Positions 34,689-51,382 of a stretch of 64,000 nucleotides of DNA are shown in pieces. The first letter of the stretch is position 1, and every line of letters begins with the position of its first letter. Both the position numbers and the translations under genes were made by a program. This stretch comes from Xylophilus ampelinus. Its GTDB lineage: Bacteria; Pseudomonadota; Gammaproteobacteria; Burkholderiales; Burkholderiaceae_C. The notes beneath the pieces are model-generated. The model ran no database searches, was not told where the DNA came from, and worked only from the letters and a program-made list of their open reading frames with translations. The stretch is taken from NCBI RefSeq assembly GCF_901875635.1, contig NZ_CABFMN010000093.1, forward strand, positions 1-64,000. The letters run 5' to 3'.

Positions 34689-34848
34689 CTCGCATGCGCC
34701 TGACGCTCGGCCTGTCCCGTGCAGTCCGGCCGCTGCTCGTGGTCTCCCGCTGCCGCTGCCGCTGAGCATCGCAGTCGGTGCAATGGTCGGCGGCGGCGAG
34801 CCGGCAACGACGATCCAGATGCCGCCGAGCGGCACCTGGCCGCGAGAT

Positions 34849-35790
34849 TCAGACCGCCGCGCTGATCAAGGGCCGCCCGGCAAAGAACGCGGCCAAGTTG
34901 TCTTCCACGCGGCGCGCCATGTCGGCCCGCGTCTCATGCGTGTTGCTTGCCACGTGCGGCAGCAGCACGACATTGTCGAGCGCCATCAGCGCCTCGGGCA
35001 CGTGGGGCTCGTGCGTGAACACATCGAGGCCCGCGCCCGCGATGCGCCGGTGCACCAGTGCATCGATCAGCGCGTCTTCGTCGGTCACGCTGCCGCGTGC
35101 GATATTCACCAGGTAGCCCTGCGGCCCGAGCGCGTCGAGGATCTCGCGCGACACCAGTCCGCGCGTGCCCTCGCCGCCGGCACTGGCAATCACCAGGAAG
35201 TCCGACCACTCGGCCAGCCCCTTCAGCGTGGGTTCGTAGACATAGGGCACATCGTTCAGCGCGCGCCGGTTGTGATAGCGCACCTCCATGTCGAAGCCCG
35301 ACGTGCGGCGCGCGATGGCCTGGCCGATGCGCCCCAGCCCCAGGATGCCCACGCGCTTTCCCGACACCTTGGTGGCCAGCGGAAACTGGCCCGTGCGCCA
35401 GTCGCCACGGCGCACGAAGCGGTCAGCCGCGCTGATGCCGCGCGCCACGTCCATCAGCAGCGCGAAGGCGGTGTCGGCCACGCAGTCGTTGAGCACGTCG
35501 GGCGTGTAGCCCACCGCGATGCCGCGCGCACGCGCCGCGTCGAGGTCGAAGGCATCGAGCCCGACGCCGAAGCTGGAGATCACCTTCAAGGCAGGCAGCG
35601 AGTCGATGAGCGCCTGGTCGGCGCCATAGCGCGCGGAGGTGACCAGGCCGACGAATTCACCGCCGCGCGCGGCGAGGAAGGCGGCGGCGTCCGGCTCTTT
35701 CCAGAGCGGGTGCACCGAATACCGTTGCGCGAGCCGGTCCTCGAGCGCCGGAAGCAGCGGCCCGAGTTGGAGAAGCGAATGGGATGGCAT
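34849..35790 (-). CDS. D-2-hydroxyacid dehydrogenase (GhrB-like hydroxypyruvate/glyoxylate reductase)
   Basis: A 313-residue NAD(P)-dependent dehydrogenase. The Rossmann motif GLGRIG is at about residues 149-154. The catalytic trio is R (in 'VNIARGSVTDEDAL'), E (in 'DVFTHEP') and H (in 'VLLPHVASNTHET'). It reduces glyoxylate, hydroxypyruvate or a similar 2-keto acid. It lies 32 bases downstream of the Lrp-type regulator gene, on the same strand, and may be controlled by it. Confidence 0.88.
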   Translation of the reverse strand: MPSHSLLQLGPLLPALEDRLAQRYSVHPLWKEPDAAAFLAARGGEFVGLVTSARYGADQALIDSLPALKVISSFGVGLDAFDLDAARARGIAVGYTPDVLNDCVADTAFALLMDVARGISAADRFVRRGDWRTGQFPLATKVSGKRVGILGLGRIGQAIARRTSGFDMEVRYHNRRALNDVPYVYEPTLKGLAEWSDFLVIASAGGEGTRGLVSREILDALGPQGYLVNIARGSVTDEDALIDALVHRRIAGAGLDVFTHEPHVPEALMALDNVVLLPHVASNTHETRADMARRVEDNLAAFFAGRPLISAAV

Positions 35791-35822
35791 GAAGCAGGTG
35801 ACGTGATGCGGGGCGCGGAAGC

Positions 35823-36323
35823 CTAATTCTGCGGTGGCACGGCAGTGCTGTACTTGATGCGCTCCATCGCGAAGCTCGAACTCACGTTAGACAGCTGCAC
35901 CAGCCGGATGAGGCGTTGGTAGAAACGGTCGTAGTCGGCGATGTCGCTCACCAGCACATGCAGCAGGTAGTCGATGTCGCCGCTCAGCCGGTAGGCGGCA
36001 GTGACCTCGGGCAGTTGCCCCAGTGCCACCGAGAAGCTCTTGAGCCACTCCTGGCTGTGGTCGCGTGCCTGGATGAAGACGAAGGCCAGCATGCCGCGGT
36101 CGAGCTTGGCCGGATCGCAGATCGCCACCTCGGCCGTGATCACGCCCGCGCTCTTGAGCCGCTGGATGCGCTTCCAGCACGCGGGGCCGCTCAGGTTGAC
36201 CATCTGCCCCAGTTCGTTGACCGGGATGGAACAGTCGCGCTGCAGGTTTTCAAGCAGCACACGATCGACCTTGTCCAAGGTAATTTCTTTTCCTGGGGCC
36301 TGCATGATGGGTTGAAAGTTCAA
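35823..36323 (-). CDS. Lrp/AsnC-family transcriptional regulator
   Basis: A 166-residue regulator with an N-terminal helix-turn-helix ('VDRVLLENLQRDCSIPVNEL', 'NLSGPACWKRIQRLKSAGVI') and a C-terminal RAM/ligand domain ('VTAAYRLSGDIDYLLHVLV'). Lrp proteins form octamers that sense amino acids. It is divergent from the Cys/Met-type PLP gene and the long import operon (55-base gap), so it is the likely controller. The start may be ATG 36323 or 36305 (MQAPGKEITL). Confidence 0.9.
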   Translation of the reverse strand: MNFQPIMQAPGKEITLDKVDRVLLENLQRDCSIPVNELGQMVNLSGPACWKRIQRLKSAGVITAEVAICDPAKLDRGMLAFVFIQARDHSQEWLKSFSVALGQLPEVTAAYRLSGDIDYLLHVLVSDIADYDRFYQRLIRLVQLSNVSSSFAMERIKYSTAVPPQN

Positions 36324-36378
36324 ATAAATTTAACCGGAGCGGGACATAAAGTTTCTGTTCACCGAAGCAGAAAGCGCC

Positions 36379-37641
36379 ATGTCCCATCGCAAATTGCATG
36401 CCATCGCAACGCCACGACAGGACACCGCCCTGACGCGCGTCGGCCGGTCGTCCCCGCACGGGCCAGCGAGCGACGACGCAGGCATTTCCCCGGCCTATGC
36501 CAACCCGCCGCTGGTGCGCGCATCGACCGTGCTGGCCGGTTCCCTGCGCGAATGGCGCGAACGCGCCGCACTGCCGACCCGCGACAAGCCCGCCGCCGCC
36601 TATGGGCGCTTCGGCACGCCGACCACGCAGGCATTCGAATCGGCGATGGCCGAACTCGAATCGGCGCATCGCGCACTTTGCTTCCCGTCGGGGCTGGCCG
36701 CCTGCACGATCTCGCTGCTGGCGCTGGCCCCGCCGGGCTCGCATGTGCTGATCACCGCCAGCGTCTATTGGCCGGTGCGCGAGTTCGCCGAGGAGACGCT
36801 CACGCAGCTGGGCTGCACCGTCGAGTTCTTCAACGAGATCGATGCCGACGGCATCGCCGCGCGCCTGCGCCCCGACACCTCGGTCGTTTATCTCGAATCG
36901 CCGGGCTCGCTGACCTTCGAGGTCTGCGACGTCGACCACATCGCGGCGCGCTGCCACGCCGCGGGCGTGCGCGTGGTAATGGACAACACCTGGGCCACGC
37001 CGGTGCTGTTTCGACCGCTCGAGCATGGCGTCGATGTGTCGGTGCAATCGGCCACCAAGTACATCTGCGGCCACTCCGACTGCATCCTCGGCGTGGCCGC
37101 GTGCAACGAGGAGACCTGGCGTGCGGTGGCAACCATGGCCACGCGCTTTGGCCAGACCGCATCGCCCGACGATCTCTATCAGGGGCTGCGCGGCCTGCGC
37201 ACGCTGGGAGTGCGCATGCGCCAGCATGGGGCCAGCGCGGTCACGCTGGCGCACTGGCTCGCCGCGCGCCCCGAGGTGATGCATGTGTTCTCGCCGGTGA
37301 TGCCCGGACATCCCGGCCACGCCGAATGGAAGCGCTTGTACGACGGCGCCTCGGGCGTGTTCTCCTTCGTGCTGAAGCCCGTGCCCGAGGCGGTGCTCGC
37401 GCGCTTCTTCGACAGCTTGCGCGCGTTCGGCATCGGCCTGTCGTGGGGTGGCTTCGAGAGCCTGGTGGTCCCGGTGCCCTCGGGCCGCACGCTGGCCATG
37501 CAACAGGTTCAAGGCGGCGGCCAGCTGGTGCGCATCGCCGCCGGCCTCGAGGCCATCGAGGATCTGGTGGAAGACCTGCGCCAAGCGCTTGATTCCATGA
37601 TCGATGTATCTTCTCTCGCCTTGTCGGCCCAGGTTGCCTGA
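36379..37641 (+). CDS. Cys/Met-metabolism PLP enzyme (cystathionine beta-lyase MetC-like)
   Basis: A 420-residue fold-type I PLP enzyme. The PLP lysine is K227 (QSATKYICGHSD). 'YGRFGTPTTQAFESAMAELE' and 'CFPSGLAACTISLLA' bind substrate and cofactor. 'MDNTWATPVLFRPLEHGVDV' is the Asp that contacts the pyridine ring. MetC-like enzymes split C-S bonds of cystathionine or S-alkyl cysteines. It opens the long operon with the peptide importer, pointing to breakdown of an imported sulfur amino acid or dipeptide (inference). Confidence 0.9.
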   Translation: MSHRKLHAIATPRQDTALTRVGRSSPHGPASDDAGISPAYANPPLVRASTVLAGSLREWRERAALPTRDKPAAAYGRFGTPTTQAFESAMAELESAHRALCFPSGLAACTISLLALAPPGSHVLITASVYWPVREFAEETLTQLGCTVEFFNEIDADGIAARLRPDTSVVYLESPGSLTFEVCDVDHIAARCHAAGVRVVMDNTWATPVLFRPLEHGVDVSVQSATKYICGHSDCILGVAACNEETWRAVATMATRFGQTASPDDLYQGLRGLRTLGVRMRQHGASAVTLAHWLAARPEVMHVFSPVMPGHPGHAEWKRLYDGASGVFSFVLKPVPEAVLARFFDSLRAFGIGLSWGGFESLVVPVPSGRTLAMQQVQGGGQLVRIAAGLEAIEDLVEDLRQALDSMIDVSSLALSAQVA

Positions 37642-37682
37642 GACCATTACACCGCCCTCCCTCCACCTCCACAGGAATGACC

Positions 37683-37769
37683 ATGCCCCGAAACCACGCG
37701 TCGATGCGCGACGTTATGCCGAGCGATGTCCTAGCCACCGTCAACGTCTTGGGCGGGGTGCGGCCATGA
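37683..37769 (+). CDS. 28-residue ORF coupled to substrate-binding-protein gene
   Basis: ATG 37683 is preceded by ACAGGA at a spacing of six. The frame (MPRNHASMRDVMPSDVLATV and eight more residues) ends in TGA 37767-37769, overlapping the ATG of the binding protein as ATGA. It sits in the 124-base gap between the PLP gene and the transporter genes. Several internal ATGs make coding by chance possible. It could be a leader peptide that couples translation, or a leftover of a longer gene. Confidence 0.4.
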   Translation: MPRNHASMRDVMPSDVLATVNVLGGVRP

Positions 37770-39361
37770 CCGACCTGTCGCGCAGAACGGTGGTGGTCGG
37801 CGGTGCCGCCCTGGCGCTGGGGAGCACGCTGGCCGGCCAGGCCATGGCACAGGCCGCGGCGAGCAAGAACACCTTGCGCATCACGCTGCCCGAGCCCGTG
37901 ATGCTGACCGGCGCCTTCAACTCGTCGGGCCAGATCTACCTGATCTCCGGCAAGATGTTCGACGGCCTGGTGACCTACGGCTTCGATTTCAAGCCGCAGC
38001 CGCAGTTGGCCGAATCGTGGCAGCTCAGCGCCGACGGCCTCACGCTCACCTTCAAGCTGCGCGCCGGCGTGAAGTGGCATGACGGCAAGCCGTTCACCTC
38101 GGCCGACCTCGCCTATTCGGCGATGAGCGTGTGGAAGGTCGCGCACCCGCGCGGGCGCTCGACCTATGCCAATCTCGAGAAGGTCGAGACGCCCGACGCG
38201 CTGACCGCCGTGATGCGCTTCAGCAAACCCGCGCCCTACGTGATGAACGCCTTGGCTGGCATCGAATCGCAGATCCTCCCGAGGCATCTGTACGAGGGCA
38301 AGGACCTGCTCACCAACCCGCTGAACTCGGCGCCGGTGGGCACCGGCCCCTACAAGTTCGTCGAGTGGCAGCGCGGCCAGTTCATCACACTCGAGCGAAA
38401 CCCCGACTACTGGGATCGGACCAAGACGCCGGTCGAACGCATCGTCGTGCGAATCATCCCCGACCCGGCCGGACGCTCGGCGGCCTTCGAGTCGGGCGAG
38501 CTCGACGTCGGCGGCGCGATCCCGGTGGCGCTGGCCGACGCCAAGCGCCTGGGCAGCCTGCCCAGCCTGGAAATCCCCGACAAGGGCACCGAGGCGCTGG
38601 CCACCATGGCCTACATCGAGTTCAACCTGCGCAAGGCGCCATTCAACGACGTGCGCGTGCGCCGCGCCATCGCCCATGCGCTCAACCGCGAGTTCATGCT
38701 GAAGAACATCTGGTACGGCTTCGGGCGCCCGTCGACCGGACCGATCTCCTCGGACATGGTCCAGTACTATTCCAAGGACGTGCCGAGCTACAAGTACGAC
38801 CTCGAAATCGCCAAGAAGCTGCTCGACGAGGCCGGCCTCAAGCCCGGCGCCGATGGCATCCGCCTGCGCATGACGCACGACCCGCTGCCAGGCGGCGACC
38901 ACTACCGCGCCACGGGCGACTACTTCCGCGCGGCGCTGCAGCGCATCGGCATCGCGGTCGAAGTGCGCAACCAGGACTTCGCGGGCTACTACAAGCGCGT
39001 CTACACCGACAACGACTTCGACACGACCAATTTCGTCGCCTTCAACCTGACCGATCCGACCATGGGCGTGCAGCGCTTCTACTGGTCGAAGAACATCCAG
39101 AAGGGCGTCGTGTTCTCCAACGGTTCGGGCTACTCGAATCCGGAGGTCGACAAGCTGCTCGAGGCCGCGCAGGTCGAAATCGATCCGGTCAAGCGCAAGG
39201 CGCAGTTCGCGGCTTTCCAGAAGATCGTGATGACCGATCTGCCCAACATCCCGATCGGCGACATCAATTACTTCACGCTGATCAACCGCCGCGTGAAGAA
39301 CTCGGTCACCAGCCCCTTCGGCGCGCACGACAACTTCGCTGCCGTGACGCTCGTGGGCTGA
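37766..39361 (+). CDS. Peptide/nickel-type ABC transporter substrate-binding protein (DppA/OppA family)
   Basis: A 531-residue periplasmic binding protein. The signal is Tat-like ('SRRTVVVGGAALALGSTLAG', cut near 'AMAQA'). Family landmarks are 'FDGLVTYGFDFKPQPQLAESW', 'FKLRAGVKWHDGKPFTSAD' (given in parts), 'GTGPYKFVEW' and 'DVRVRRAIAHALNRE'. It delivers peptides or peptide-like compounds to the permeases that follow. ATG 37766 overlaps the small ORF. The related KPN_01854-type binding proteins, as I recall them, occur with CMD/AhpD-like genes as here. Confidence 0.9.
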   Translation: MTDLSRRTVVVGGAALALGSTLAGQAMAQAAASKNTLRITLPEPVMLTGAFNSSGQIYLISGKMFDGLVTYGFDFKPQPQLAESWQLSADGLTLTFKLRAGVKWHDGKPFTSADLAYSAMSVWKVAHPRGRSTYANLEKVETPDALTAVMRFSKPAPYVMNALAGIESQILPRHLYEGKDLLTNPLNSAPVGTGPYKFVEWQRGQFITLERNPDYWDRTKTPVERIVVRIIPDPAGRSAAFESGELDVGGAIPVALADAKRLGSLPSLEIPDKGTEALATMAYIEFNLRKAPFNDVRVRRAIAHALNREFMLKNIWYGFGRPSTGPISSDMVQYYSKDVPSYKYDLEIAKKLLDEAGLKPGADGIRLRMTHDPLPGGDHYRATGDYFRAALQRIGIAVEVRNQDFAGYYKRVYTDNDFDTTNFVAFNLTDPTMGVQRFYWSKNIQKGVVFSNGSGYSNPEVDKLLEAAQVEIDPVKRKAQFAAFQKIVMTDLPNIPIGDINYFTLINRRVKNSVTSPFGAHDNFAAVTLVG

Positions 39362-39367
39362 GGACCG

Positions 39368-40357
39368 ATGGGCCCCTCGACCCCACCCCTGGTGCGCTTC
39401 CTCGGGCGACGGCTTCTGCACGGGCTCGTGGTGCTGGTGTGCATTGCGGTGCTCGACTTCGTGCTGCTGCACATGGCGCCGGGCGACGCGGCCGAGATCC
39501 TGGCGGGCGAATCGGGCGGCAGCGATGCGACCTACGTCGCGCAGTTGCGTGCGCAGTTCGGACTCGACCAGCCGCTGTACAAGCAGCTCGGCCACTACCT
39601 GCTGAGGCTCGCACAGTTCGACCTGGGTTGGTCCGGACGCAACAACATGTCGGTCGCGCAGCTGCTGATGTCGCGCCTGCCGGCCACGCTGCTGCTGATG
39701 GTCGCGGCCATCACGTTGGCAGTGGTGGCCGGCGCGGCGCTGGGCACGCTGGCCGCGCGCCGCGTGAACTCGCCAACCGACAACGCCATCGCCGTGTTCT
39801 CGCTACTCTCCTACGCCACGCCGCTGTTCTGGCTCGGGCTGATGCTGATCGTGCTGTTCTCCGTCACGCTGCGCTGGCTGCCGACCGGCGGCATGGAAAG
39901 CGTGGGCGCGGGGCTTACCGGCTGGAGCCGCATCATCGATGTCGCGGCGCATGCGGTGCTGCCCACCATCACGCTGGGGTTGTTCTACATGGCCGTGTAC
40001 ACACGCCTGGTGCGCGCTTCGGTGCTCGAGGTGAAGGAGATGGACTATGTGCGCATGGCGCGCGCCAAGGGCCTGAGCCCCGCACGTGTGACGCTGCGCC
40101 ACGTGTTCCGCAACGCGATGCTGCCGATGGTCACCATGCTGGGCGTACAGGTCGGCTCGCTGCTGGGGGGCGCGGTCGTGGTCGAGATGGTGTTCAGCTG
40201 GCCCGGCCTCGGCCGCCTGGCATTCGACGCGGTGCTCGCGCGCGACTTGAACCTGCTGCTGGGGATCGTGCTCGCCAGCGCGGTACTGGTCATCCTCATC
40301 AACATCGCGGTCGACCTGCTCTATGCACGGCTCGACCCCCGGATCGAGGTGCGCTGA
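39368..40357 (+). CDS. ABC transporter permease, DppB type
   Basis: A 329-residue inner-membrane permease with six helices. The N-terminal 'LLHGLVVLVCIAVLDFVLLH' and 'MAPGDAAEILAG' are DppB/OppB landmarks, and the coupling helix carries the EAA-like motif 'YVRMARAKGLSPARVTLRHV'. It starts six bases after the binding-protein stop. Confidence 0.92.
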   Translation: MGPSTPPLVRFLGRRLLHGLVVLVCIAVLDFVLLHMAPGDAAEILAGESGGSDATYVAQLRAQFGLDQPLYKQLGHYLLRLAQFDLGWSGRNNMSVAQLLMSRLPATLLLMVAAITLAVVAGAALGTLAARRVNSPTDNAIAVFSLLSYATPLFWLGLMLIVLFSVTLRWLPTGGMESVGAGLTGWSRIIDVAAHAVLPTITLGLFYMAVYTRLVRASVLEVKEMDYVRMARAKGLSPARVTLRHVFRNAMLPMVTMLGVQVGSLLGGAVVVEMVFSWPGLGRLAFDAVLARDLNLLLGIVLASAVLVILINIAVDLLYARLDPRIEVR

Positions 40358-40358
40358 G

Positions 40359-41198
40359 ATGGTCCGTGCAATGCGTTTTGCGCGTGACTTCGCCAGACGC
40401 TGGCCCGCGCTGCTCGGTCTGGTGCTGCTGCTGGCCGTGGTGTGCGCCGCGCTGTTCGCGCCGGTGTTCTATCCCGAAGACCCCCTCGAGATGGTCGGGC
40501 AGCCGCTGACCTGGCCTGGCAAGGACGCGACCACGCCGCTGGGCACCGACACGCTCGGCCGTGACGTGGCTTCAGGCATCGTGCACGGTGCACGCGTGTC
40601 GCTGGCGGTCGGGTTCTCGGCCACGCTGGTCGCGATGATCGTGGGCGTCGGCGTCGGCGCCACCGCCGGCTACGCGGGCGGCCGCGTCGACGACCTGCTG
40701 ATGCGCCTCACCGAAGTGTTCCAGACCATTCCGAACTTCGTGCTGCTGATCGTGCTGGTGGTCGTGCTGCAGCCCTCGCTCGGCACCGTGACCGTGGCGA
40801 TCGCCGCCGTGTCGTGGCCCAGCCTCGCGCGGCTGGTTCGCGCCGAGGTAATGGCGCTGCGGCGGCGCGAGTTCGTGCAGTCGTGCGTGACGCTGGGCAT
40901 GGGCCACCTACGCATCGTGCTCACGCAGATCCTGCCGAACTGCCTGGCACCGGTGATCGTCACCGCATCGATCATGATGGCCAGCGCCATCCTGATGGAG
41001 ACCGGCCTGTCCTTCCTCGGCCTGGGCGACCCGAACGTCGTGAGCTGGGGCAGCATGATCGGCAACGGCCGCAATTCGCTGCGCACTGCGTGGTACCTCT
41101 GCGCGATTCCGGGCGTGGCGATCATTCTCACGGTGCTGTCGATCAACCTCGTCGCCGAGGGACTCAACGACGTGCTCAATCCGAGGCTGCAGCGCTGA
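40359..41198 (+). CDS. ABC transporter permease, DppC type
   Basis: A 279-residue permease with six helices. It has 'HPLGTDTLGRDV'-like 'TPLGTDTLGRDVASGIVHGA' after the first helix and the EAA motif 'RREFVQSCVTLGMGHLRIV'. ATG 40359 lies one base after the DppB-type stop; its TGA overlaps the next gene (TGATG). Confidence 0.92.
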   Translation: MVRAMRFARDFARRWPALLGLVLLLAVVCAALFAPVFYPEDPLEMVGQPLTWPGKDATTPLGTDTLGRDVASGIVHGARVSLAVGFSATLVAMIVGVGVGATAGYAGGRVDDLLMRLTEVFQTIPNFVLLIVLVVVLQPSLGTVTVAIAAVSWPSLARLVRAEVMALRRREFVQSCVTLGMGHLRIVLTQILPNCLAPVIVTASIMMASAILMETGLSFLGLGDPNVVSWGSMIGNGRNSLRTAWYLCAIPGVAIILTVLSINLVAEGLNDVLNPRLQR

Positions 41199-42165
41199 TG
41201 GCCGCACTCGACATCCAGGACCTCAACGTCACGCTCACGCGCGACGGCCAGCGCTTTCTCGCGGTCGAAGGCGTCACGCTCGGGGTCGAACGGGGCCAGA
41301 CGCTAGCGCTCGTCGGCGAATCGGGCAGCGGCAAGTCGGTGACGGCGCTGGCCATCATGCGGCTGCTGCCGCCGCGCGGGGCGAGTCTCGCGGCCAAGAA
41401 GCTTTCACTCGACGGCGTCGACCTGATGGCGCTGCCCGAGCGCGAGATGCGCCGTATCCGCGGCAACCGCATCTCGATGGTGTTCCAGGAGCCGATGACC
41501 TCGCTCAACCCGGTGCTCACCATCGGCGAGCAGATCGTCGAAGTGCTTCGCGAGCACGAAGACCTGACGCACGCCCAGGCCTGGGAGCGCGCCATCGAAC
41601 TGTGCAAGCGCGTGCGCATCCCCGACGCCGAACGCAAGGTCAAGGACTACCCGCACCGCCTGTCGGGCGGCATGCGGCAGCGCGTGGTGATCGCCATCGC
41701 GCTTGCCTGCCAGCCGGACATCCTGATCGCCGACGAGCCGACCACCGCGCTGGACACCACGATCCAGGCACAGGTGCTGCGGCTGCTGCGCGAGCTGCAG
41801 CGTGAAAGCAATGCGGGCGTGCTGCTCATCACGCACAACCTGGGCGTGGTGGCGCAAGTGGCCGACCGCGTGGCCGTGATGTACGCCGGCCGCACGGTCG
41901 AACATGCGGCCGTGCGCGACCTGTTCCGCCAGCCGCTGCATCCGTACACGCAGGGCCTGCTGCGGGCGATGCCGGTGCCGGGTTCGACCGACCGGCTCGT
42001 CGAGATCCCGGGCAGCGTGCCCGATCCGCGGCGTCGCCCGGCCGGCTGTGCCTTCCACGACCGTTGCCCGCGTGCGATCGCCCTCTGCCGCGAGGCGCGG
42101 CCCGACATGGTCGAGCTGGCACCGGGCCATTCGGTCGCCTGCTTCGTGGCCCAGGAAGAGACGGC

Positions 42166-42169
<4 letters not shown>
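41198..42169 (+). CDS. ABC transporter ATP-binding protein, DppD type
   Basis: A 323-residue ATPase with Walker [10 protein letters not shown]-loop '[11 protein letters not shown]', signature LSGGM, Walker B '[12 protein letters not shown]' and H-loop 'LLITHNLG'. The C-terminal oligopeptide-transporter extension has its three cysteines for an FeS-like site ([12 protein letters not shown]...C). Its start overlaps DppC by one base and its end overlaps DppF (ATGA). Confidence 0.93.
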
Positions 42170-43205
<1,036 letters not shown>

Positions 43206-43209
<4 letters not shown>

Positions 43210-44012
43210 GCAAGGTCGCAGGCAAGGTCGCGCTCGTCACCGGCGCCACCGGCGGCCTCGGCTCAGCCATCGCGCTGCAGCTCGCCGCCTCGGGTTGCCG
43301 CGTGGTGGTGCACTACGGCCATGACGCTGCGAAGGCCGACGCCGTGGTCGCCGACTGCATCGCGGCCGGCAGCGAGGCCGTGGCCGTGAGCGGCGACCTG
43401 GCCGAAGACGACGCCTGCCGCCGCATAGCGACCGAAGCCGCAGCCGCCTGGGGCCGCATCGACGTGCTGGTGAACAACGCCGCGATCACGCGCTTCATTC
43501 CGCATGCCGATCTCGAGGCGCTCGACTCCGCCAGCTTTCGCCAGGTGATGGACGTGAACCTGATGGGCCCGTTCCAGATGACGCGCGCCGCGTTGCCCTG
43601 GCTGCGCGCGCACGGTGCAGGCAGCGTGGTCAACATCTCGTCGACGGCGGGCCAGGCCGGCACCGGCAGCTCGATCGCCTATGCGGCCTCGAAGGCGGCA
43701 CTCAACAACCTCACGCTGACGCTGGCCCGCGCGCTCGCGCCCGCCGTGCGGGTGAACGCGGTCGTGCCTGGCTTCATCGCCAACGACTGGCTGCTGAAGG
43801 GCATCGGACCCGAGCGCTTCGCGGCGCTCACGGCCGCGCAAATCGCGGCCACGCCGCTGCAGCACGCGGCGACGCCCGACGACGTGGCCGAGGTCGCGGT
43901 GTGGGTGGCGCTGTCGGCGCGCCATCTCACCGGCGAGCTGGTGCGCGTCGACGGTGGACACCACCTGGGACCGGGCTCCGCGGTGGTCCCGAGCGAACGG
44001 AGAGCCCCTTGA
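43206..44012 (+). CDS. Short-chain dehydrogenase/reductase (first in operon)
   Basis: A 268-residue NAD(P)-dependent oxidoreductase. The glycine motif is 'TGATGGLGSAI', NNAA at about residue 91, and the catalytic Ser-Tyr-Lys are in 'VVNISSTAGQ' and 'YAASKAAL'. The C-terminal 'LVRVDGGHHL' is typical of FabG-like SDRs. It overlaps the DppF ATPase at its start and the flavoprotein at its end. The substrate is unknown. Confidence 0.9.
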
Positions 44013-45466
44013 TCCCCGACACCCACACCACGGCCCTCGACCGCCTCGCGCAACAGGCGCACCATGAACGAACGCTGTTCGACTACCCGCCGCGCGAATG
44101 GGTGCCGCCGCGCTTGCGCGACGGCGAGCGGGTGCTCGACGTCGTCATCGTCGGTGGCGGGCAGAACGGCATCGCCGCCGCGTCGGGCCTTCAGCAGGCG
44201 CGCGTGCCCAACCTTCTCATGCTCGACGAGAACCCCGAAGGCCGTGAAGGCCCCTGGGTGACCTACGCGCGGATGATCACCCTGCGCACCATCAAGACGC
44301 TGCCCGGCCCCGCGCTGAAGGTGCCTGCGCTGTCGTTCCAGAGGTGGTACGAGGCCCAGTACGGGGCCGACGCCTGGGAGGCCTTGGTGCGCATCCCCAA
44401 GGAAATGTGGATGGCCTACCTTGGCTGGATCCGCCAGACGCTGGCGATCCCGACGATGCACAGCACGCGGCTCGAACTGATCGAACCCGCCGACGGCCTG
44501 CTGCGCCTGACGGTGCGCACGCCGGCCGGCACGCAGCACATCCTCACGCGCAAGGTGGTTCTGGCCACCGGCAGCACCGGCGCAGGTGGCCGCAACATCC
44601 CGGCTTTCGTCGAACAGAAGCTGCCGCGCGACCGCTGGGCGCACAGCGCCCAGTCGATCGACTTCGCGGCACTCCAGGGCAAGGACGTGGCGGTGCTCGG
44701 CGCCGGCGCGTCGGCCTTCGACAACGCGGCCACCGCGCTGGAAGCGGGCGCCGCGCGCGTCGACCTCTACATGCGCCGCGCCACGCTGCCCGAGATGAAT
44801 AGCGCGCGCTTCATGGAGTTCGAAGGCCTGTACCGCCACTTCGCGGAGATGGACAGCCTGGTGCGCTGGCGCTTCATGCGCAAGATCTTCGCGAGCCCGA
44901 TGCCGCCGCCGCCCGACACCTTCCTGCGCACAACGGCCTTCCCCAACTTCCACATGCACTTCGAATCGGCCTGGGAAGACGTCGGCGTTCGCGATGACGG
45001 CAAGATCGAACTGGTCACGCCGACGGGCACGCACACGGCGGATTTCGCGATCCTGGGCACCGGCTTCGCGGCCAACCTTGCGCGCCGGCCTGAACTGGCC
45101 GCGGTGCTGCCGCACGTCGCGCTGTGGGGCGATCGCTTCGTGCCGCCGGCCGGCGAGGAGTCGCCTGCCATCGCCCGCTTCCCCTTCCTGGGTGCCGGCT
45201 TCGAGCTGACCGAGCGCACGCCGGGCGAGTGCCCGGAGGTCGCGGACATCCACATGTTCAACGGCGGCGCGCTGCCCAGCATGGGCCCGATCGGCCTGGG
45301 CATCAACGGCATGGCGCATGGCACCGAGCGGCTGGTGCGGGGCATCACGCGGGACTTCTACCTGCGTGACGCCGAGCGCTTCTGCGCCGAGTTCCTGGCC
45401 TACGACGTGCCCGAAGCCAAGCTGGTGCCTGCACCGGTGGCCATGCCGTCGCCTTCACCGACCTGA
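44009..45466 (+). CDS. FAD/NAD(P)-binding monooxygenase-like flavoprotein
   Basis: A 485-residue protein. A first Rossmann motif 'VVIVGGGQNGIAAASGLQ' (FAD) and a second 'VAVLGAGASAFDNAATALEAG' (NADPH) are separated as in flavin-containing/N-hydroxylating monooxygenases. 'GPWVTYARMITLRTIK' follows the first. The start is TTG 44009, which overlaps the SDR stop as TTGA, with GGAG eight bases upstream; no ATG fits better. In this operon it could oxidise nitrogen or sulfur of the imported compound (inference). Confidence 0.85.
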   Translation: MIPDTHTTALDRLAQQAHHERTLFDYPPREWVPPRLRDGERVLDVVIVGGGQNGIAAASGLQQARVPNLLMLDENPEGREGPWVTYARMITLRTIKTLPGPALKVPALSFQRWYEAQYGADAWEALVRIPKEMWMAYLGWIRQTLAIPTMHSTRLELIEPADGLLRLTVRTPAGTQHILTRKVVLATGSTGAGGRNIPAFVEQKLPRDRWAHSAQSIDFAALQGKDVAVLGAGASAFDNAATALEAGAARVDLYMRRATLPEMNSARFMEFEGLYRHFAEMDSLVRWRFMRKIFASPMPPPPDTFLRTTAFPNFHMHFESAWEDVGVRDDGKIELVTPTGTHTADFAILGTGFAANLARRPELAAVLPHVALWGDRFVPPAGEESPAIARFPFLGAGFELTERTPGECPEVADIHMFNGGALPSMGPIGLGINGMAHGTERLVRGITRDFYLRDAERFCAEFLAYDVPEAKLVPAPVAMPSPSPT

Positions 45467-45487
45467 ACCCTCCACCTTTGGACTGCC

Positions 45488-46009
45488 ATGACCACACCCG
45501 ACGTGATCGACCGACTGATGGGCCTGCAGCCCGGCGACTTCCTGAGTGACCTTCGCCATGAACGCCCGGCCGTGCGGCAGCACAGCCAGGGCAGCTTTGA
45601 CGCGCTGCTGAATGTGGCCCAGGCGGCCGACCTGTCCCCTGCCGAGCGCGACATGGTCGCGCTGCGGGTGGCCACGCTGCACGCCTGTGCGCCGCTGGTG
45701 GCGCTGCACCGCGAGCGCCTGGCCGCGCTGGGCATTGGACCTGCCGCAATGGATGCCGCCGCGGCGAGCCCGGATGCAAATGGCGCGACGGCTGCCGATG
45801 GCTTCGACGCGCGCACGGTCGCCCTGCTGCGCCACGCCGATCTGCTGACCTTGCGGCCCATCGAGGCGCGGCCCGAGCACCTGCATGCGCTCGCCGACGC
45901 GGGCCTCGCACCGGCCGCCATCGTCACGTTGTCGCAACTGATCGCCTTCGTTGCGTACCAGGTGCGCGTCGTCGCTGGCTTGACGCTGCTGGAACGGAGC
46001 CCCGCATGA
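45488..46009 (+). CDS. CMD-domain protein (Avi_7170-like)
   Basis: A 173-residue protein of the carboxymuconolactone decarboxylase/AhpD fold: 'AERDMVALRVATLHACAPLVALH' (given in part: RDMVALRVATLHAC). The usual CxxC is not complete (one Cys at the catalytic helix), which suggests a non-peroxidase role. I recall a defined but unstudied family, 'CMD domain protein, Avi_7170', usually next to an AhpD-like partner as here. It overlaps that partner (ATGA). Confidence 0.82.
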   Translation: MTTPDVIDRLMGLQPGDFLSDLRHERPAVRQHSQGSFDALLNVAQAADLSPAERDMVALRVATLHACAPLVALHRERLAALGIGPAAMDAAAASPDANGATAADGFDARTVALLRHADLLTLRPIEARPEHLHALADAGLAPAAIVTLSQLIAFVAYQVRVVAGLTLLERSPA

Positions 46010-46575
46010 ACTTCACGCTCGACACGCTCGACTGGAAGCCCTGGATTGCGGCCGTGCCGCTGGAAGACTGCAGCGAAGCACAGCTTGCAGTGCTCGACGC
46101 CAGCAACCGCAGTGCACGCCAGTCGCAGTACTACCTGACCCTGGTGCACGACGCGCCCGCGCTGCTGGAGCGCTCGCTGCTCTTCAATGCCGTGATGTAC
46201 GGAACCAAGGGGCTGCCACGCGCCGAGCGCGAGTTCGCGACAGTGGTGGAGTCGCGCATCAACGGCTGCCCGTACTGCGCATCCGTGCACGCGCGTCTCT
46301 TCGTGCAACTGGCCAAGGACCTGCCGACGATGCAGGGCCTGCTCGCCGACGGCCCCGCCGCACCGATGCCGCCGAGACTGCGCGCCATCGCCGACTACGC
46401 CGCGGCGCTCACCACCACGCCGCCGAGCGCCACGCCGGCGCATATCACCGCGCTGCGCGAGGTCGGCCTCACCGACCTCGAGATAGCCGACGCAACGCAT
46501 GCCGTAGCGATGTTTGCCTGGGCCAACCGCCTGATGCAGACGCTAGGCGAGCCCTTTCTGCCGCAAGCCGCCTGA
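46006..46575 (+). CDS. Alkylhydroperoxidase-domain protein (AhpD-like, Avi_7169-like)
   Basis: A 189-residue protein with the intact AhpD redox site 'INGCPYCASVHARLF' (C-x-x-C with the following His), preceded by 'EREFATVVESR'. AhpD-type proteins reduce peroxides or carry out decarboxylation-like chemistry. It forms a pair with the preceding CMD protein and probably a heteromeric complex (inference). Start ATG 46006 overlaps the CMD stop. Confidence 0.85.
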   Translation: MNFTLDTLDWKPWIAAVPLEDCSEAQLAVLDASNRSARQSQYYLTLVHDAPALLERSLLFNAVMYGTKGLPRAEREFATVVESRINGCPYCASVHARLFVQLAKDLPTMQGLLADGPAAPMPPRLRAIADYAAALTTTPPSATPAHITALREVGLTDLEIADATHAVAMFAWANRLMQTLGEPFLPQAA

Positions 46576-46616
46576 AGGCGGCGCGCGGCGCTGTCACTGT
46601 TCGAGGAGATTCCGTC

Positions 46617-47351
46617 ATGCCCTTTCCCCCTTCGCTCGGTTATCGCATCGCGCTCGTCACCGGTGCCTCGAGTGGCATCGGCGCCTCCACGGTCGAGGCG
46701 CTGACTGCGGCCGGCCTCAAGGTGTACGCCGTGGCCCGCCGCGGCGACCGTCTGCAAGCGCTTGCGCAGCGAACCGGCTGCATCCCGCTGGTGCTGGACA
46801 TCACCGACCGCACCGCCTGCGCCGCCGCACTCGACGGGCTGGAAATCGACATCCTGGTGAACAACGCCGGCGGTTCGCACCAGAGCCCGCTGCAGGACTA
46901 CCCGCCGGACGAGATCGATCGAATCCTCGACCTGAACCTGCGTGCCGTGATGCACCTCAACCGCATCGTGCTGCCCGGCATGCTCGAGCGCGACCGCGGC
47001 CACATCGTGGTGATCGGTTCGATGGCAGGCCACTATCCGATGCGCGGCTCGGCGCTTTACTCCGCCGCCAAGGCCGCGGTATCGCACGCCTTCGACGTGC
47101 TGCGCCTTGACACGCTGGGCAGCCGCGTGCGCTGGACCGAAGTCGCGCCCGGCCGCGTGGCGACCGAAGCCTTCATCAACTCCATCGGCCCCGAGCGTGC
47201 CAAGGAATTCCTGAGCAAGGAAACGCTGCAGCCCGAAGACCTGGCCGCCTCGATCTGTCACGCGCTGATGGCGCCGCCCCACGTGAACGTGAGCCGCATC
47301 GAGATCTATCCGGTCAAGCAGGCGTCGGGCGGCTTTCTCTACGCGGACTGA
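46617..47351 (+). CDS. Short-chain dehydrogenase/reductase (YdfG-like, last in operon)
   Basis: A 244-residue SDR. The glycine motif is 'TGASSGIGAST', NNAG is present, and the catalytic residues are in 'VVIGSMAGHYP' and 'YSAAKAAVSHA'. The layout and the end 'IYPVKQASGGFLY' match YdfG-type 3-hydroxy acid/serine dehydrogenases. It is 41 bases after the AhpD-like gene with GAGGAG upstream and ends the long operon. Confidence 0.9.
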   Translation: MPFPPSLGYRIALVTGASSGIGASTVEALTAAGLKVYAVARRGDRLQALAQRTGCIPLVLDITDRTACAAALDGLEIDILVNNAGGSHQSPLQDYPPDEIDRILDLNLRAVMHLNRIVLPGMLERDRGHIVVIGSMAGHYPMRGSALYSAAKAAVSHAFDVLRLDTLGSRVRWTEVAPGRVATEAFINSIGPERAKEFLSKETLQPEDLAASICHALMAPPHVNVSRIEIYPVKQASGGFLYAD

Positions 47352-47440
47352 AACGACCTGTCGGCTGGGGTGGGTCGCATCGGATCCATCAAGCCGACCC
47401 GATTGCCGCGCAGACTGCACTGTCCGCTTTGCCCGGCCCC

Positions 47441-48409
47441 TCAAACCCCCCGCGTCAAATATACCGCTTCCCGCCCCACGATCGGCTCGCGCGTCGGCAT
47501 GAAGATCGTGCACCCGTCGCAGGGCGAGACGATGGTGCGGTCGCCGTCGGTGGCGATGAGCTCGTCCTTGGCAAAGGTCTCGAAGCCGACCAGCGGGCGC
47601 TCGAAGCGGAACTCGGTGGTGTGGACCATGTGCGTCTGCAGGAGTTCATAGCGGCGCTGCGGCTCCTTGGGCGTGGAGGGCTCGGGCGCGTCGATGAGGC
47701 CGAAGTGGGCCAGAAAGTCCAGCGTCACGGCAGTGGCCAGTTGCGAGGCCGATGCCTTGAAATGCTGGCCGCACTCGACCACCATGGCGGTGCCGGGGCC
47801 GGGCCCGTCGTTGCCGTGGCGGCCGTACTGGATGAGCGGGATGCCCGACCCCAAACCCTGCGGCATGACCAGGTGCACCGGCGGCCGGCCGATGGCCATG
47901 GCAACGGCGCCGTTGCGCTCGAAGGCGGGGTACACCCAGAAGGGCACGACGTCCTGGCTCGTCGAATGGATGTCGAGGATGTGGTCGGCCGCGTCGACCA
48001 CGGTGCGCATGGCGCGGGCGCGCTGCAGTTCGGGGCTGTCTTCGGCGCCGTCGAGCCATTCGCTGGACCAGATGCGGTTCATGTTGTGCACCAGCTGCCG
48101 GCTCTCGAAGGGCTTCTCGATGTCGAAGCTCTCGTACGCGGCCACGTTGGCGAAGCTGACGGTGAGCGTGCCGATCCTGGGCCGCACGCCGGTGTCGAGC
48201 AGATGGGTGGCGGCGACCATGCCGCAGATCTCGTTGCCGTGCGTCAGCGCGTTGATGAGCACGTGCGGGCCGGGGCGGCCGGATTCGAAGCGGTGGACGT
48301 ACTCGACGCCGGTGTTGCCGGCCTTGTAGGCCGACAGGTCGCGCGGCGTGACTTCGAGCGTGGGGAGCGGGGTTGGGGTGTGGGTCATTGCGCCATTCTG
48401 GCGCGTCAT
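47441..48409 (-). CDS. Succinylglutamate desuccinylase/aspartoacylase-family (AstE/AspA) protein
   Basis: A 322-residue zinc carboxypeptidase-like protein. Zinc ligands are H and E in 'LTHGNEICG' and a later His in 'LDIHSTSQD'; the catalytic Glu is in 'MVVECGQH'. These enzymes hydrolyse N-acyl amino acids. ATG 48409 overlaps the stop of the sheath-like gene (ATGA), which argues for that start; ATG 48388 (MTHTP) is an alternative. It is convergent with the long operon. Confidence 0.87.
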   Translation of the reverse strand: MTRQNGAMTHTPTPLPTLEVTPRDLSAYKAGNTGVEYVHRFESGRPGPHVLINALTHGNEICGMVAATHLLDTGVRPRIGTLTVSFANVAAYESFDIEKPFESRQLVHNMNRIWSSEWLDGAEDSPELQRARAMRTVVDAADHILDIHSTSQDVVPFWVYPAFERNGAVAMAIGRPPVHLVMPQGLGSGIPLIQYGRHGNDGPGPGTAMVVECGQHFKASASQLATAVTLDFLAHFGLIDAPEPSTPKEPQRRYELLQTHMVHTTEFRFERPLVGFETFAKDELIATDGDRTIVSPCDGCTIFMPTREPIVGREAVYLTRGV

Positions 48410-50151
48410 CCGCCGGGCTGCAGCACGCCCGCCGCGCTGCCGGTCCAGCGCAGGACGACGAACTCCGCGGGCCGCAGCAGCGCCATGCCGATTTCACACA
48501 CCACCCTGCCCTGGGCGACGTCAGCGGGCGTCATGGTGCGGCTGAGGGCGCACTGCACGTACCAGGCGTCGCGCGGGCGGCCGCCCTGCAGTGCACCCTC
48601 GCGCCACTGGCCCCGCAGGAAGTTGTCGACGGTCGCGCCCACCCGGGCCCACAAGGCCTCGCCTTGCGGCTCGAAGGCGACCCAGCGCAGTCCCGCGTCG
48701 AGCGAGGCCTCGATGGCGTCAACGTAGCGGCGCAGGTGGACGTAGCGCCACTGCGGGTCAGACGACAGCGTGCGGCCGCCCCACAGCACGAGGCCGCGGC
48801 CGATGAACTCCCGAAAGCAGTTGATGCCGAGCGGGTTGAGATGCTCCTGCTCGTGGGTGCTCACGGGCTGCTCTGCGCGAATCACGCCCCGCACCGCCAG
48901 GTCGGCCGGTGCGTGATGCACGCCGCGCTGCAGGTCCGAGCGCGCATACAGGGCTGCGACGGCGCCGCTGGGCGCCACGGTGACCGTCGCGCCGACGACG
49001 CCTGGCGGCGGCAGCGGGTCGGGCACCACCAGGCAGGGCCAGTGCAGCGCGGCGTGCGGCGAATCGACCTCGGCGCGCTGCGCCTGCACGTCCGCCGCGG
49101 TCAGGCCCGGCGCCGGGTCGAGCAGCGCCATGCGCCAGGCCCGCGGTGCGCCGGCATGCGCGACCAGCGCGGCGCGCAGCACGGCGCCGTCGGGGCGCAG
49201 GCTGCTTCCGGGCGCAGCGACGAGGCGCACGTCATCCAGGCCGGCCAGCGTGGCGAAGGCGGCGGCGTAGCTGCCGGGCTCGTCCGCCGCGCCCAGGGAT
49301 GGCAATCGGCCGTCGGTGCCGCCGGCCAGCGGGATGGGCGCCAGGCCGTCGGCATCGGGCACCAGCGAACGCACCGCATCGAGCAGCACCCAGGCATCGG
49401 CCGCCGGCGCGAGCTCCCACCACACGGACGCACGTCCCACGGCGGCCGCCCCTCGCGAGAGCACCGTGCCCACCCACCGTGGATGCAGTGCGGAGAAGGC
49501 CAGCCCCGTCCAGGCGTCCAGCAGCAGGCCCTCGGCGTCGAGGCATTCGATGTCGAAGCTGAGGATGCGGCTCACGCCGACGCGTCCATGCACCACCCGG
49601 CGGCCCTGGCGGTCGTGCCAGCGGCCCTGGGCATCGGCGACGCATTCGAAGATGCCGTCCTCGTTGGCCGTACGCATCAGCGCGCCCGGTTCGGCATGGG
49701 TCATGGCGCGCAAGGTGGCCGGGCTGGCACGCTCGCGCAGCCGGACGATGCCGTTGCCCAGGCGGCCGGGCGTCGCGGCGTGGATCACGATGGACCGGTC
49801 CGGCGCGACACCGTCGGGGTGCAGCGTCGCGCTGGCTGCGGTCGCCGCTGCCGCGGTCCGCTGCACGTACAGCCGCGCGCCGCCGTTGTCGAAGAAGGCG
49901 CGCACGGCCAGTGCGATGTGGTTGGTCCGCGGCGCCACGCCGCCGGCGCCGTCGTCGAGCCACAGCGGCCGCGCGTCGCCATAGATGCGCTCGAAGTCCG
50001 CCACGCTCGCGAGCACAGGCGGCGCGCCTTCCACCGGCCCGCGGCGGGTCGGCCCGACGAAGGCCGCGATGTGCGTGGGCACCAGCGTGATCGTGTAGCT
50101 CGACAAGGGCGTCTCTTCGACGTAGACGCCGGGAGCGGTGGAGGCCGGCAA
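48406..50151 (-). CDS. Orphan phage tail-sheath-like protein
   Basis: A 581-residue protein with the sheath N-terminus 'STAPGVYVEETPLSSYTI' followed by 'THIAAFVGPTRRGP' and 'FERIYGD', and the C-terminal domain 'GVIRAEQPVSTHEQEHLNPL', 'GLVLWGGRTLSSDPQWRYVH' and 'VRRYVDAIEASL'-like 'LRRYVDAIEASLDAGLRWVA'. Contractile tails and injection machines polymerise such subunits. I choose TTG 50151 because AGGGAGG lies eight bases upstream and the family start follows at once; ATG 50250 would add a 33-residue tail unlike the family. No tube, baseplate or other tail gene is near. Confidence 0.88.
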   Translation of the reverse strand: MPASTAPGVYVEETPLSSYTITLVPTHIAAFVGPTRRGPVEGAPPVLASVADFERIYGDARPLWLDDGAGGVAPRTNHIALAVRAFFDNGGARLYVQRTAAAATAASATLHPDGVAPDRSIVIHAATPGRLGNGIVRLRERASPATLRAMTHAEPGALMRTANEDGIFECVADAQGRWHDRQGRRVVHGRVGVSRILSFDIECLDAEGLLLDAWTGLAFSALHPRWVGTVLSRGAAAVGRASVWWELAPAADAWVLLDAVRSLVPDADGLAPIPLAGGTDGRLPSLGAADEPGSYAAAFATLAGLDDVRLVAAPGSSLRPDGAVLRAALVAHAGAPRAWRMALLDPAPGLTAADVQAQRAEVDSPHAALHWPCLVVPDPLPPPGVVGATVTVAPSGAVAALYARSDLQRGVHHAPADLAVRGVIRAEQPVSTHEQEHLNPLGINCFREFIGRGLVLWGGRTLSSDPQWRYVHLRRYVDAIEASLDAGLRWVAFEPQGEALWARVGATVDNFLRGQWREGALQGGRPRDAWYVQCALSRTMTPADVAQGRVVCEIGMALLRPAEFVVLRWTGSAAGVLQPGG

Positions 50152-50318
50152 GCTCAGGGCCTCCCTGGGTTGGGGCGGCTGAGCGCGACGTGGGGGGCGG
50201 AACGGGCAGCCATGGGGGCGCGGGGACAGGTCCGGGAAAGAACGGACCATTGTGGGCGGCGCCCCTCCCGCTGCCCATCTGCCGGATGGCCAGTCCGCGT
50301 GCCCGCGGCGGCCAGGGA

Positions 50319-51314
50319 TCAGTCGGCCGCTTCTTCTTCGTTCGCCGCGTCGTCGTCGTCCGCGCGACGGCCGGTGCCCTTCTTGGCCTTGAGCGCGGCC
50401 TCGCGCCGTTTGCGCAGTTCGGCCTCGGCCTTTCGGCCGTCGCTCAGCCACTTGGTGAACTGGTTGACCGTCTCGAGCGTGATGCGCCCGAGCGCGCCGC
50501 TGCGGAAATCGGTGATCAGCGCCTCGGCGGCCTTCTGCCGGTCGACCCGGCCCCCGCTGACGAGGGCACCGCGCTTGCGGCCGACGGCGTCGAGGATGTC
50601 TTCGTCGGGCTGCGTGCACAGCGCCGCCTGGGCCGTATCGGCCGCCAGCTTGTAGCGGCCGCGCAGCGCCTCGGTGTACTGGGCCTTGAGGTAGGCGATG
50701 AGCTCCAGCGCGACTTCCTCGTCGTCGTAGGCGTTGCGGCCCACCGCGCCGCTGATGGCCAGCCGGTAGCCGCTCTCGGGCACGATGATCTTGGGCCACA
50801 GCATGCCCGGCGTGTCGTAGAGGTAGAAGTCGTCGGCCAGCAGGATGCGCTGTTCCTGCTTGGTCACGCCCGCCTCGTCGGCCGCCTTGGCCTGGCGCTT
50901 GAGGCTCAGGGTGTTGATCAGGGTCGACTTGCCCACGTTGGGCACGCCGCAAATGAGCACGCGCATCGGCTTGGCCAGCCCGCCGCGGTTGGGCGACAGG
51001 CGGTGGCAGGCGTCGATGATGGCCTGGCGCTGGGCCGGCGCGGTCTGGCTGGCGTCCAGGGCGATGGCGCCGGTGGCGCTCTGCGCCTGGTAGTGGGCCA
51101 GCCACTCGGCGGTGCGGGCGGGGTCGGCCAGGTCCTGCTTGTTGAGGATCTTCAGCCGCGGCTTGACCGAGGTCATGCCCTCGATGGCCGGGTTGGCGCT
51201 GGAGCCCGGCAGGCGCGCGTCGAGCAGTTCGATCACGACGTCGGTGGTCTTGAGCCGCTCCGCGATCGCCTTGCGGGTGGCATTCATGTGACCGGGGAAC
51301 CACTGGATCGTCAT
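50319..51314 (-). CDS. ylqF: Ribosome-biogenesis GTPase YlqF/RbgA
   Basis: A 331-residue circularly permuted GTPase that helps assemble the 50S ribosomal subunit. The G motifs run G4 'NKQD', then G1 'GVPNVGKST', then G3 'DTPG', the order unique to the YlqF/YjeQ group. 'WFPGHM' at the N-terminus is the family signature. A charged C-terminal tail (KKGTGRRADDDD...) is unusual but common in this family of Burkholderiales. ATG 51314 (MTIQWFPGHM) is preferred over the longer frame. Confidence 0.93.
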   Translation of the reverse strand: MTIQWFPGHMNATRKAIAERLKTTDVVIELLDARLPGSSANPAIEGMTSVKPRLKILNKQDLADPARTAEWLAHYQAQSATGAIALDASQTAPAQRQAIIDACHRLSPNRGGLAKPMRVLICGVPNVGKSTLINTLSLKRQAKAADEAGVTKQEQRILLADDFYLYDTPGMLWPKIIVPESGYRLAISGAVGRNAYDDEEVALELIAYLKAQYTEALRGRYKLAADTAQAALCTQPDEDILDAVGRKRGALVSGGRVDRQKAAEALITDFRSGALGRITLETVNQFTKWLSDGRKAEAELRKRREAALKAKKGTGRRADDDDAANEEEAAD

Positions 51315-51382
51315 CGGGGCGCGGGCTGCTGGCTGCAAAGAAGGGAAGGCGCGATTGTCCGCGCTCGGCCCCATGACCCGGT

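What the first reader, a model, noticed from the sequence alone, without database searches (positions are those of the whole stretch)
48406..50151. Orphan tail-sheath-like gene coupled to an amidohydrolase
A full-length sheath-like protein stands alone, with no tube, baseplate, capsid or lysis gene in the neighbourhood, and its stop overlaps the start of an AstE/AspA-type zinc hydrolase. Either it is a prophage or tailocin leftover, or a domesticated protein with a new role. The long, in-frame and unbroken gene argues for selection. The TTG start with AGGGAGG is chosen by ribosome site.
Basis: partly seen in the sequence, partly recalled or inferred. Interest (0 to 1): 0.75.

Follow-up and report, generated by a model that had tools for sequence, protein, structure and literature searches.

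The report
Lone injection-machine sheath gene, kept
A bacterium carries one gene for the contractile outer sleeve of a phage-tail-like injection machine, although most of that machine was not found in its close relatives' genomes; the gene has stayed intact at the same chromosomal site, so it may be kept for a job of its own, which is not yet known.

Summary
The sheath gene is real: 48406-50151 (-), 581 aa, PF04984 + PF17482, predicted sheath fold. Outside its genus it is closest (38-47%) to first sheaths of extracellular contractile injection system (eCIS) clusters and to other solo sheaths, not to phage sheaths. The window's own assembly is not held. In seven genomes of one genus (six close, 79-91%; G402, 55%) the order is YlqF-sheath-AstE. 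In five of them no Pvc16 cap, and no Baseplate_J over the cut-off outside a prophage-like locus, was found. The six close genomes each have one tube gene on another contig, akin to a different cluster type; G402 has none, so the sheath persists without it. Selection is purifying but weaker than on cluster sheaths (dN/dS 0.26-0.48 against 0.06-0.22). AstE is an older, separate gene: orthologues occur without this sheath, and its conserved start lies 17 nt past the sheath stop, so the drawn overlap is doubtful. Solo sheaths recur in at least five other family genomes among ordinary genes. Best reading: a displaced eCIS sheath retained as a stand-alone, possibly self-assembling protein. Slow decay is not excluded.

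The parts
48406..50151 (-). Solo tail-sheath gene (581 aa, TTG start, TGA stop)
50160..50166 (-). Shine-Dalgarno-like AGGGAGG, 8 nt before the TTG
   Evidence: Direct reading; AGGAGG at the corresponding place in G402
50152..50318 (-). 167-bp gap between YlqF stop and sheath start; no sigma-70-like promoter or terminator by consensus scan
47441..48409 (-). AstE/AspA-type hydrolase ORF; real start more likely at 48388
   Evidence: PF24827 E 4.5e-10; relatives; spacing in G402
50319..51374 (-). Ribosome-biogenesis GTPase YlqF/RbgA, upstream neighbour; real start probably at an internal Met (inference)
   Evidence: TIGR03596 E 9.2e-90

Best explanation
A first-type sheath gene of an eCIS-like cluster came to lie between the housekeeping genes YlqF and AstE in an ancestor of part of one genus, without its machine, and has been kept there as a stand-alone gene. 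Shown: family, predicted sheath fold, solo context, same site in seven genomes, purifying but relaxed selection, persistence in G402 without any PF06841 tube. Inferred: it is translated from the conserved ribosome site, the product folds as a sheath subunit, and, because sheath proteins can form tubes without other tail proteins (reported for phage FV3 gp053), it most likely acts as a self-associating protein or empty polysheath in the cell rather than as part of an injector. What it does for the cell is not known. My confidence is about 0.9 for a displaced eCIS-type sheath, 0.8 that it is still under selection, 0.5 that it has a role of its own, 0.3 that it forms tubes.
For: Pfam, PDB sequence and fold matches. 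eCIS clusters whose first sheath is 38-47% identical in ten family genomes. Tree: seven Xenophilus-type rows form one group (96/99) among eCIS sheaths. YlqF-sheath-AstE in G001-G005, G381 and G402. No Pvc16 (0 of 5); Baseplate_J over the cut-off only beside the second sheath of G004/G005, one strain, with sub-threshold hits (E 0.02-0.5) elsewhere. G402: no PF06841. dN/dS 0.26-0.48 in 10 of 10 pairs; indels only of 3 nt among six copies; excess of third-position changes. Recurrence: solo sheaths at L063, L069, L180, L184, L185, ordinary neighbours, no tail family but sheath among the 25 of 57 PHROGs listed; no PF06841 in their genomes. FV3 gp053 polysheaths: start of abstract of PMC6357053 in a search listing.
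Against: Constraint is weaker than on cluster sheaths (0.06-0.22, nine pairs) and even along the protein (0.29-0.34; 0.40 in the last 11 residues), as slow decay would give; but at the same identity (about 81%) cluster pairs reach 0.21-0.22, so the gap there is about 1.5-fold. Of 159 columns conserved in 15 cluster sheaths the window has lost 48; those replaced in all six close copies lie mostly in the N-terminal arm (8 of 19) and C-terminal part (20 of 64), regions expected to make subunit contacts, which speaks against ordinary sheath assembly. No promoter-like site. No expression data. The other solo sheaths share no partner gene, so no pathway is suggested.
Confidence: 0.5

Rival explanations
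1. Slow decay. The gene is a relic of a lost eCIS with no present use; the GC-rich genome makes stops rare, so the frame has stayed open, and dN/dS below 1 reflects a function lost recently or weak selection against misfolded product.
For: dN/dS above that of cluster sheaths; about 30% of cluster-conserved columns lost; 65-113 of 200 neutral runs keep the frame open; the youngest pair has the highest ratio, 0.477.
Against: The copies in all seven genomes are full length, with only 3-nt indels among the six close sequences; third-position excess in all six comparisons with the window; ratio well below 1 in 10 of 10 pairs; the 55% copy in G402 is intact, 572 aa; start and ribosome site conserved.
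Confidence: 0.27
2. A dispersed minimal contractile device: the sheath works with the tube and the tube-adaptor-like protein (weakly PF19266-like) encoded at a second locus between an NrtR-type and a GNAT gene.
For: Among 15 genus genomes the tube is found in exactly the six that carry the close (79-91%) sheath. Tube dN/dS 0.11-0.15, adaptor 0.31-0.40, four genomes each. Tube and adaptor are adjacent at L071-L074 and in G381.
Against: The tube's nearest relatives (72-80%) sit beside a different sheath family in other clusters, so tube and sheath stem from different systems. G402 keeps a sheath without a tube. No Pvc16 cap, and no Baseplate_J over the cut-off outside the prophage-like locus. 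The six genomes are close kin, so co-occurrence may be shared descent.
Confidence: 0.13
3. A poison of foreign tail assembly: the solo sheath subunit joins the sheath of an infecting contractile phage inside the cell and stalls it.
For: Fast change and recurrence of solo sheaths would fit; nothing tests it directly.
Against: In the 20 of 40 phage records listed, sheaths match over 27-29% of its length at 28-36% identity, and none of the 40 covers 80%. Defence-family scans (padloc) were not run.
Confidence: 0.06
4. Sheath and AstE form a functional pair, the sheath scaffolding or localising the hydrolase.
For: Tight packing and the same order in seven genomes.
Against: AstE exists at 67-84% identity in 63 listed family genomes without a window-type sheath; no AstE relative was found by tblastn in the stretches around the five other solo sheaths; AstE dN/dS 0.04-0.11 is far lower than the sheath's.
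Confidence: 0.04

Closest known systems
eCIS / CIS sheath proteins (PF04984 + PF17482; e.g. Streptomyces coelicolor CIS 8bky/9gts, H. borinquense 9ezm)
   Different: No machine around it; about 30% of cluster-conserved positions lost; higher dN/dS
eCIS clusters of family genomes (L058-L062, L064-L068)
   Same: Their first sheath is 38-47% identical over nearly the whole length
   Different: There the gene lies between a Pvc16/DUF4255-type gene and a tube gene, with a second sheath and tube downstream; here between YlqF and AstE
Recombinant phage sheaths that form tubes alone (FV3 gp053, PMC6357053; RaK2 041, PMC8618960; both seen only as start of abstract)
   Same: A sheath subunit without tube or baseplate
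   Different: Laboratory expression of phage genes; here a chromosomal gene in nature, assembly untested
Type VI secretion sheath TssB/TssC
   Same: Related sheath fold (recalled); G002 does have a T6SS TssE gene
   Different: Single-chain eCIS-type sheath, other family; T6SS sheath genes were not searched

Membership tests
Phage tail sheath family PF04984/PF17482 | Scores above curated cut-offs for both domains | tested here: met
   51.9 against 31.4 and 40.4 against 26.9 bits
Phage tail sheath family PF04984/PF17482 | Sheath fold | tested here: met
eCIS gene cluster | Several linked core genes (survey rule: at least four linked within 12 kb, three different Pfams) | tested here: not met
   No other labelled eCIS gene in the window or in L001-L005. 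Rule from passages of PMC8213781
eCIS machine encoded anywhere in the genome | Baseplate_J, gp25 and Pvc16 cap outside prophage and T6SS | tested here: inconclusive
   G001-G005: Pvc16 0 of 5; Baseplate_J over cut-off only at the prophage-like locus of G004/G005. gp25 over cut-off in 5 of 5, shown to be TssE for G002 only; the others inferred from size and score, and G003 has a second gp25 gene not examined. Spike, gpD and ATPase not searched. Window's own genome not held
eCIS machine encoded anywhere in the genome | Tube protein | tested here: met
   One PF06841 gene each in G001-G005 and G381, on another contig and akin to another cluster type; none in G402
Prophage or tailocin | Neighbouring phage structural or lysis genes | tested here: not met
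   PHROGs scan of 57 window proteins: no other tail or head family among the 25 of 42 listed; one endolysin-named family (phrog_6700) matches one ORF, not examined
Self-assembling polysheath | Forms tubes without other tail proteins | not testable with these tools
   Needs expression and electron microscopy

The most novel reading that the evidence does not exclude
Bacteria of this family have several times over kept a single eCIS-type sheath gene after losing the injector and turned it into a free-standing intracellular protein, probably a tube-free self-assembling sheath with a host function; eCIS surveys that require linked core genes miss the class by design.
Probability: 0.35. Interest if true: 0.68.

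Novelty: new variant of a known kind. Interest (0 to 1): 0.47.

Why it matters
A contractile sheath gene is usually read as a sign of an injector. A retained solo sheath, seen at unrelated sites in several genomes of the family, says that this reading can fail, that surveys need a look without the linkage rule, and that the sheath fold may have been re-used by the host cell. It can be tested in a collection strain that carries it, Xenophilus aerolatus DSM 19424 (L002).

Tried and rejected
Viral contigs: no stretch matched any of the six peptide patterns. Phage records: 40 with a match, none covering 80%; the 20 listed match in the C-terminal third at 28-36%. Plasmid records: 125 with a match, none covering 80%. 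These make a recent phage or plasmid source unlikely. Literature: eight searches listed no paper on solo eCIS sheaths; I saw found passages of PMC9230969, PMC8213781, PMC10598620 and PMC12210884 and otherwise only listings with starts of abstracts. That is not proof of absence from print. Considered and dropped: an antisense reading of the locus (codon-position pattern favours the sheath frame); the open frame alone as a sign of selection; the ATGA overlap as translational coupling. The sheaths at L182, L183, L186 and L187 (30-33% identity) also had no labelled eCIS neighbour, but my labelled set would miss other phage types, so they are not counted as solo (L182 and L183 are rows of the solo label in the tree). 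L070 and L181 have no PF06841 in their genomes but are shorter (377 and 413 aa as read) and were not put through the PHROGs scan. Promoter and terminator scan: nothing. Not used: viral fold library, a second AF2 job, RNA-family searches, padloc.

Full report

Start and stop. TTG with a GGGAGG ribosome site is kept in all six copies printed (window, L001-L005; L004 and L005 are the same strain), and the 55% copy in G402 begins with ATG behind AGGAGG at the same point. The AstE overlap rests on an upstream Met: in G402 the matching AstE start is 17 nt after the sheath stop, and the window has the same 17 nt if AstE starts at 48388.

Orphan status. In the window tblastn finds no other eCIS gene of the labelled set, and the part of the PHROGs list shown (25 of 42 families) has no other tail gene. 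The window's own assembly is not held, so relatives were used. L001 is 97% identical to the window over 13.8 kb. In G001-G003 there is one PF04984 gene each, in G004/G005 (one strain) a second of 408 codons, which lies near Baseplate_J and a gp25 hit and is probably prophage (inference). Other Baseplate_J hits are below the cut-off, E 0.02-0.5. Pvc16 is absent in 5 of 5. gp25 hits over the cut-off occur in 5 of 5; that of G002 is TssE of a T6SS; for the others this is inferred, and G003 has a second gp25 gene that I did not examine. Spike, gpD and ATPase genes were not searched genome-wide.

A split partner locus. Each of the five genomes, and G381, has exactly one PF06841 tube gene, in all six on another contig than the sheath. 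In the five genomes looked at (G001, G002, G003, G005, G381) it is followed by a 186-aa protein that in G002 has a sub-threshold match to CIS_tube (PF19266, 20.8 against 27 bits, E 3.5e-4); at L071-L074 the pair lies between an NrtR-type and a GNAT gene. Tube relatives of 72-80% identity in 18 family genomes sit next to another sheath family in all 18 stretches fetched, with DUF4255 in most and adaptor-, gpV- or gpD-like genes where the stretch reaches. So the group carries pieces related to two systems. Among 15 genus genomes the tube occurs in exactly the six with the close sheath, but these are close kin; G402, with the sheath at the same site, has no PF06841.

Origin. In a sample of 399 family genomes, 90 have some sheath relative (at most three candidates per genome were scored). 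Four of the 90 are of the window's type; of the other 86 I looked at the neighbourhoods of 49, so this is not a census. Ten loci (L058-L062, L064-L068) are eCIS clusters in which the gene 38-47% identical to the window's is the first sheath, between a Pvc16-type gene and a tube; L060 and L068 are cut before the baseplate genes. In a 41-row tree the seven Xenophilus-type rows (window, G001-G004, G381, G402) form one group (96/99) among these sheaths; their sister is not resolved; the eight-row solo label needs five changes, at least three forced by well-supported branches. The tree carries warnings: one very long solo row (L070) and unusual letter make-up in eleven rows, the window's among them.

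Site. YlqF, sheath, AstE is the order in L001-L005, G381 and G402. AstE of 67-84% identity is listed for 63 family genomes without a window-type sheath. Of 14 such AstE regions examined, G350 has YlqF about 420 bp away with no sheath, G181 has a different gene between them (read by eye as a SulP-like transporter), G008 has a larger gap, and the other 11 show no YlqF. So the sheath came to an older pair, or was lost elsewhere; the tree does not settle which.

Selection. Over five copies (window, G001-G004) dN/dS is 0.26-0.48 for the sheath, 0.04-0.11 for AstE and 0.07-0.12 for YlqF; over four genomes each, tube 0.11-0.15 and adaptor 0.31-0.40. Nine cluster-sheath pairs give 0.06-0.22; the two of them at about 81% identity give 0.21-0.22, so at equal divergence the difference is about 1.5-fold. 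The six close copies differ only by indels of 3 nt (against G402 the nucleotide alignment also splits one 3-nt gap into 2 and 1), and third positions differ most in all six comparisons with the window. The open frame by itself is weak: 65-113 of 200 neutral runs per distance show no stop. Against strong function: the ratio is even over the protein, and 48 of 159 cluster-conserved columns are lost in the window, against 0-17 in 14 of 15 cluster rows tested leave-one-out (the exception, the distant Roseomonas row, loses 60 of 182). The five other solo rows lose 12-44 of 159; the lowest, L185, lies within the cluster range. Columns replaced in all six close copies: 8 of 19 in residues 1-30, 0 of 17 in 31-105, 2 of 6 in 106-265, 8 of 53 in 266-462, 20 of 64 in 463-581. 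In the wider set the window has lost 53 of 184 columns, the 52 other homologues a median of 1 and at most 39. The N-terminal core is kept while arm and C-terminal positions have moved, which fits a protein freed from its tube and neighbours, or one beginning to decay.

Recurrence. L063 (G247), L069 (G369), L180 (G069), L184 (G309) and L185 (G066) hold sheaths with no labelled eCIS gene in the stretch fetched. Nearby genes are GGDEF, M23 peptidase, GST, SoxZ, MscS, histidine kinase, exonuclease, glyoxalase and YebC genes. In a PHROGs scan of 93 of 116 called ORFs, from these five loci and L205, six members match tail sheath and no other tail family is among the 25 of 57 listed. None of these genomes has a PF06841 tube; tubes of other families were not searched. 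L069 and L184 share part of their surroundings and group together in the tree, so they probably share one event.

Mechanism. I take the most likely course to be: a sheath gene separated from its cluster, set between YlqF and AstE, still translated from its own ribosome site, giving a sheath-fold subunit that may self-associate. A phage sheath made alone can form polysheaths (PMC6357053, start of abstract seen). Whether this one does, and to what end, is untested; slow decay stays a serious rival at 0.27.

Known or new. The protein family is known, and some relatives are named phage tail sheath in public records. The solo, retained state is what looks new: the passages read of two eCIS surveys define systems by linked genes (PMC8213781) or by required baseplate, tube and initiator classes (PMC12210884), so solo sheaths would be filtered out. 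My eight literature searches listed no description.

Noticed in passing
window 34690-47436: About 12.7 kb of the window (with oxidoreductase, SDR and carboxymuconolactone-decarboxylase-like genes at its AstE end) is absent in L003, where AstE is followed directly by sequence matching window 34689 downwards; L004/L005 have about 7.6 kb of other sequence there. A variable spot beside the sheath-AstE block.
   Followed up: partly
L010/L011, G005:C1 and G004:C10: A 408-codon sheath ORF near Baseplate_J and a gp25 hit in both copies of strain E41: probably a prophage or tailocin.
   Followed up: no
L071-L074: Conserved NrtR-tube-adaptor-GNAT locus; the tube evolves slowly (dN/dS 0.11-0.15) although no labelled cluster gene surrounds it in these stretches: a second orphan tail part.
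   Followed up: partly
window 48373-50655 (+): 760-codon antisense ORF over the sheath, a reminder that long open frames mean little in this GC-rich DNA.
   Followed up: partly
P0084, P0085: Two other relatives that also lost about 19-20% of otherwise conserved columns; possibly further solo sheaths, context unknown.
   Followed up: no
L070, L180, L181: Short sheaths of 377-413 aa as read, in genomes with no PF06841 tube.
   Followed up: partly
G407, G403, G405 (L206-L208): Genus members with other sheath genes (37-42% in the C-terminal part), no labelled eCIS gene but sheath in the stretch and no PF06841 tube; could be phages of another tube type.
   Followed up: no
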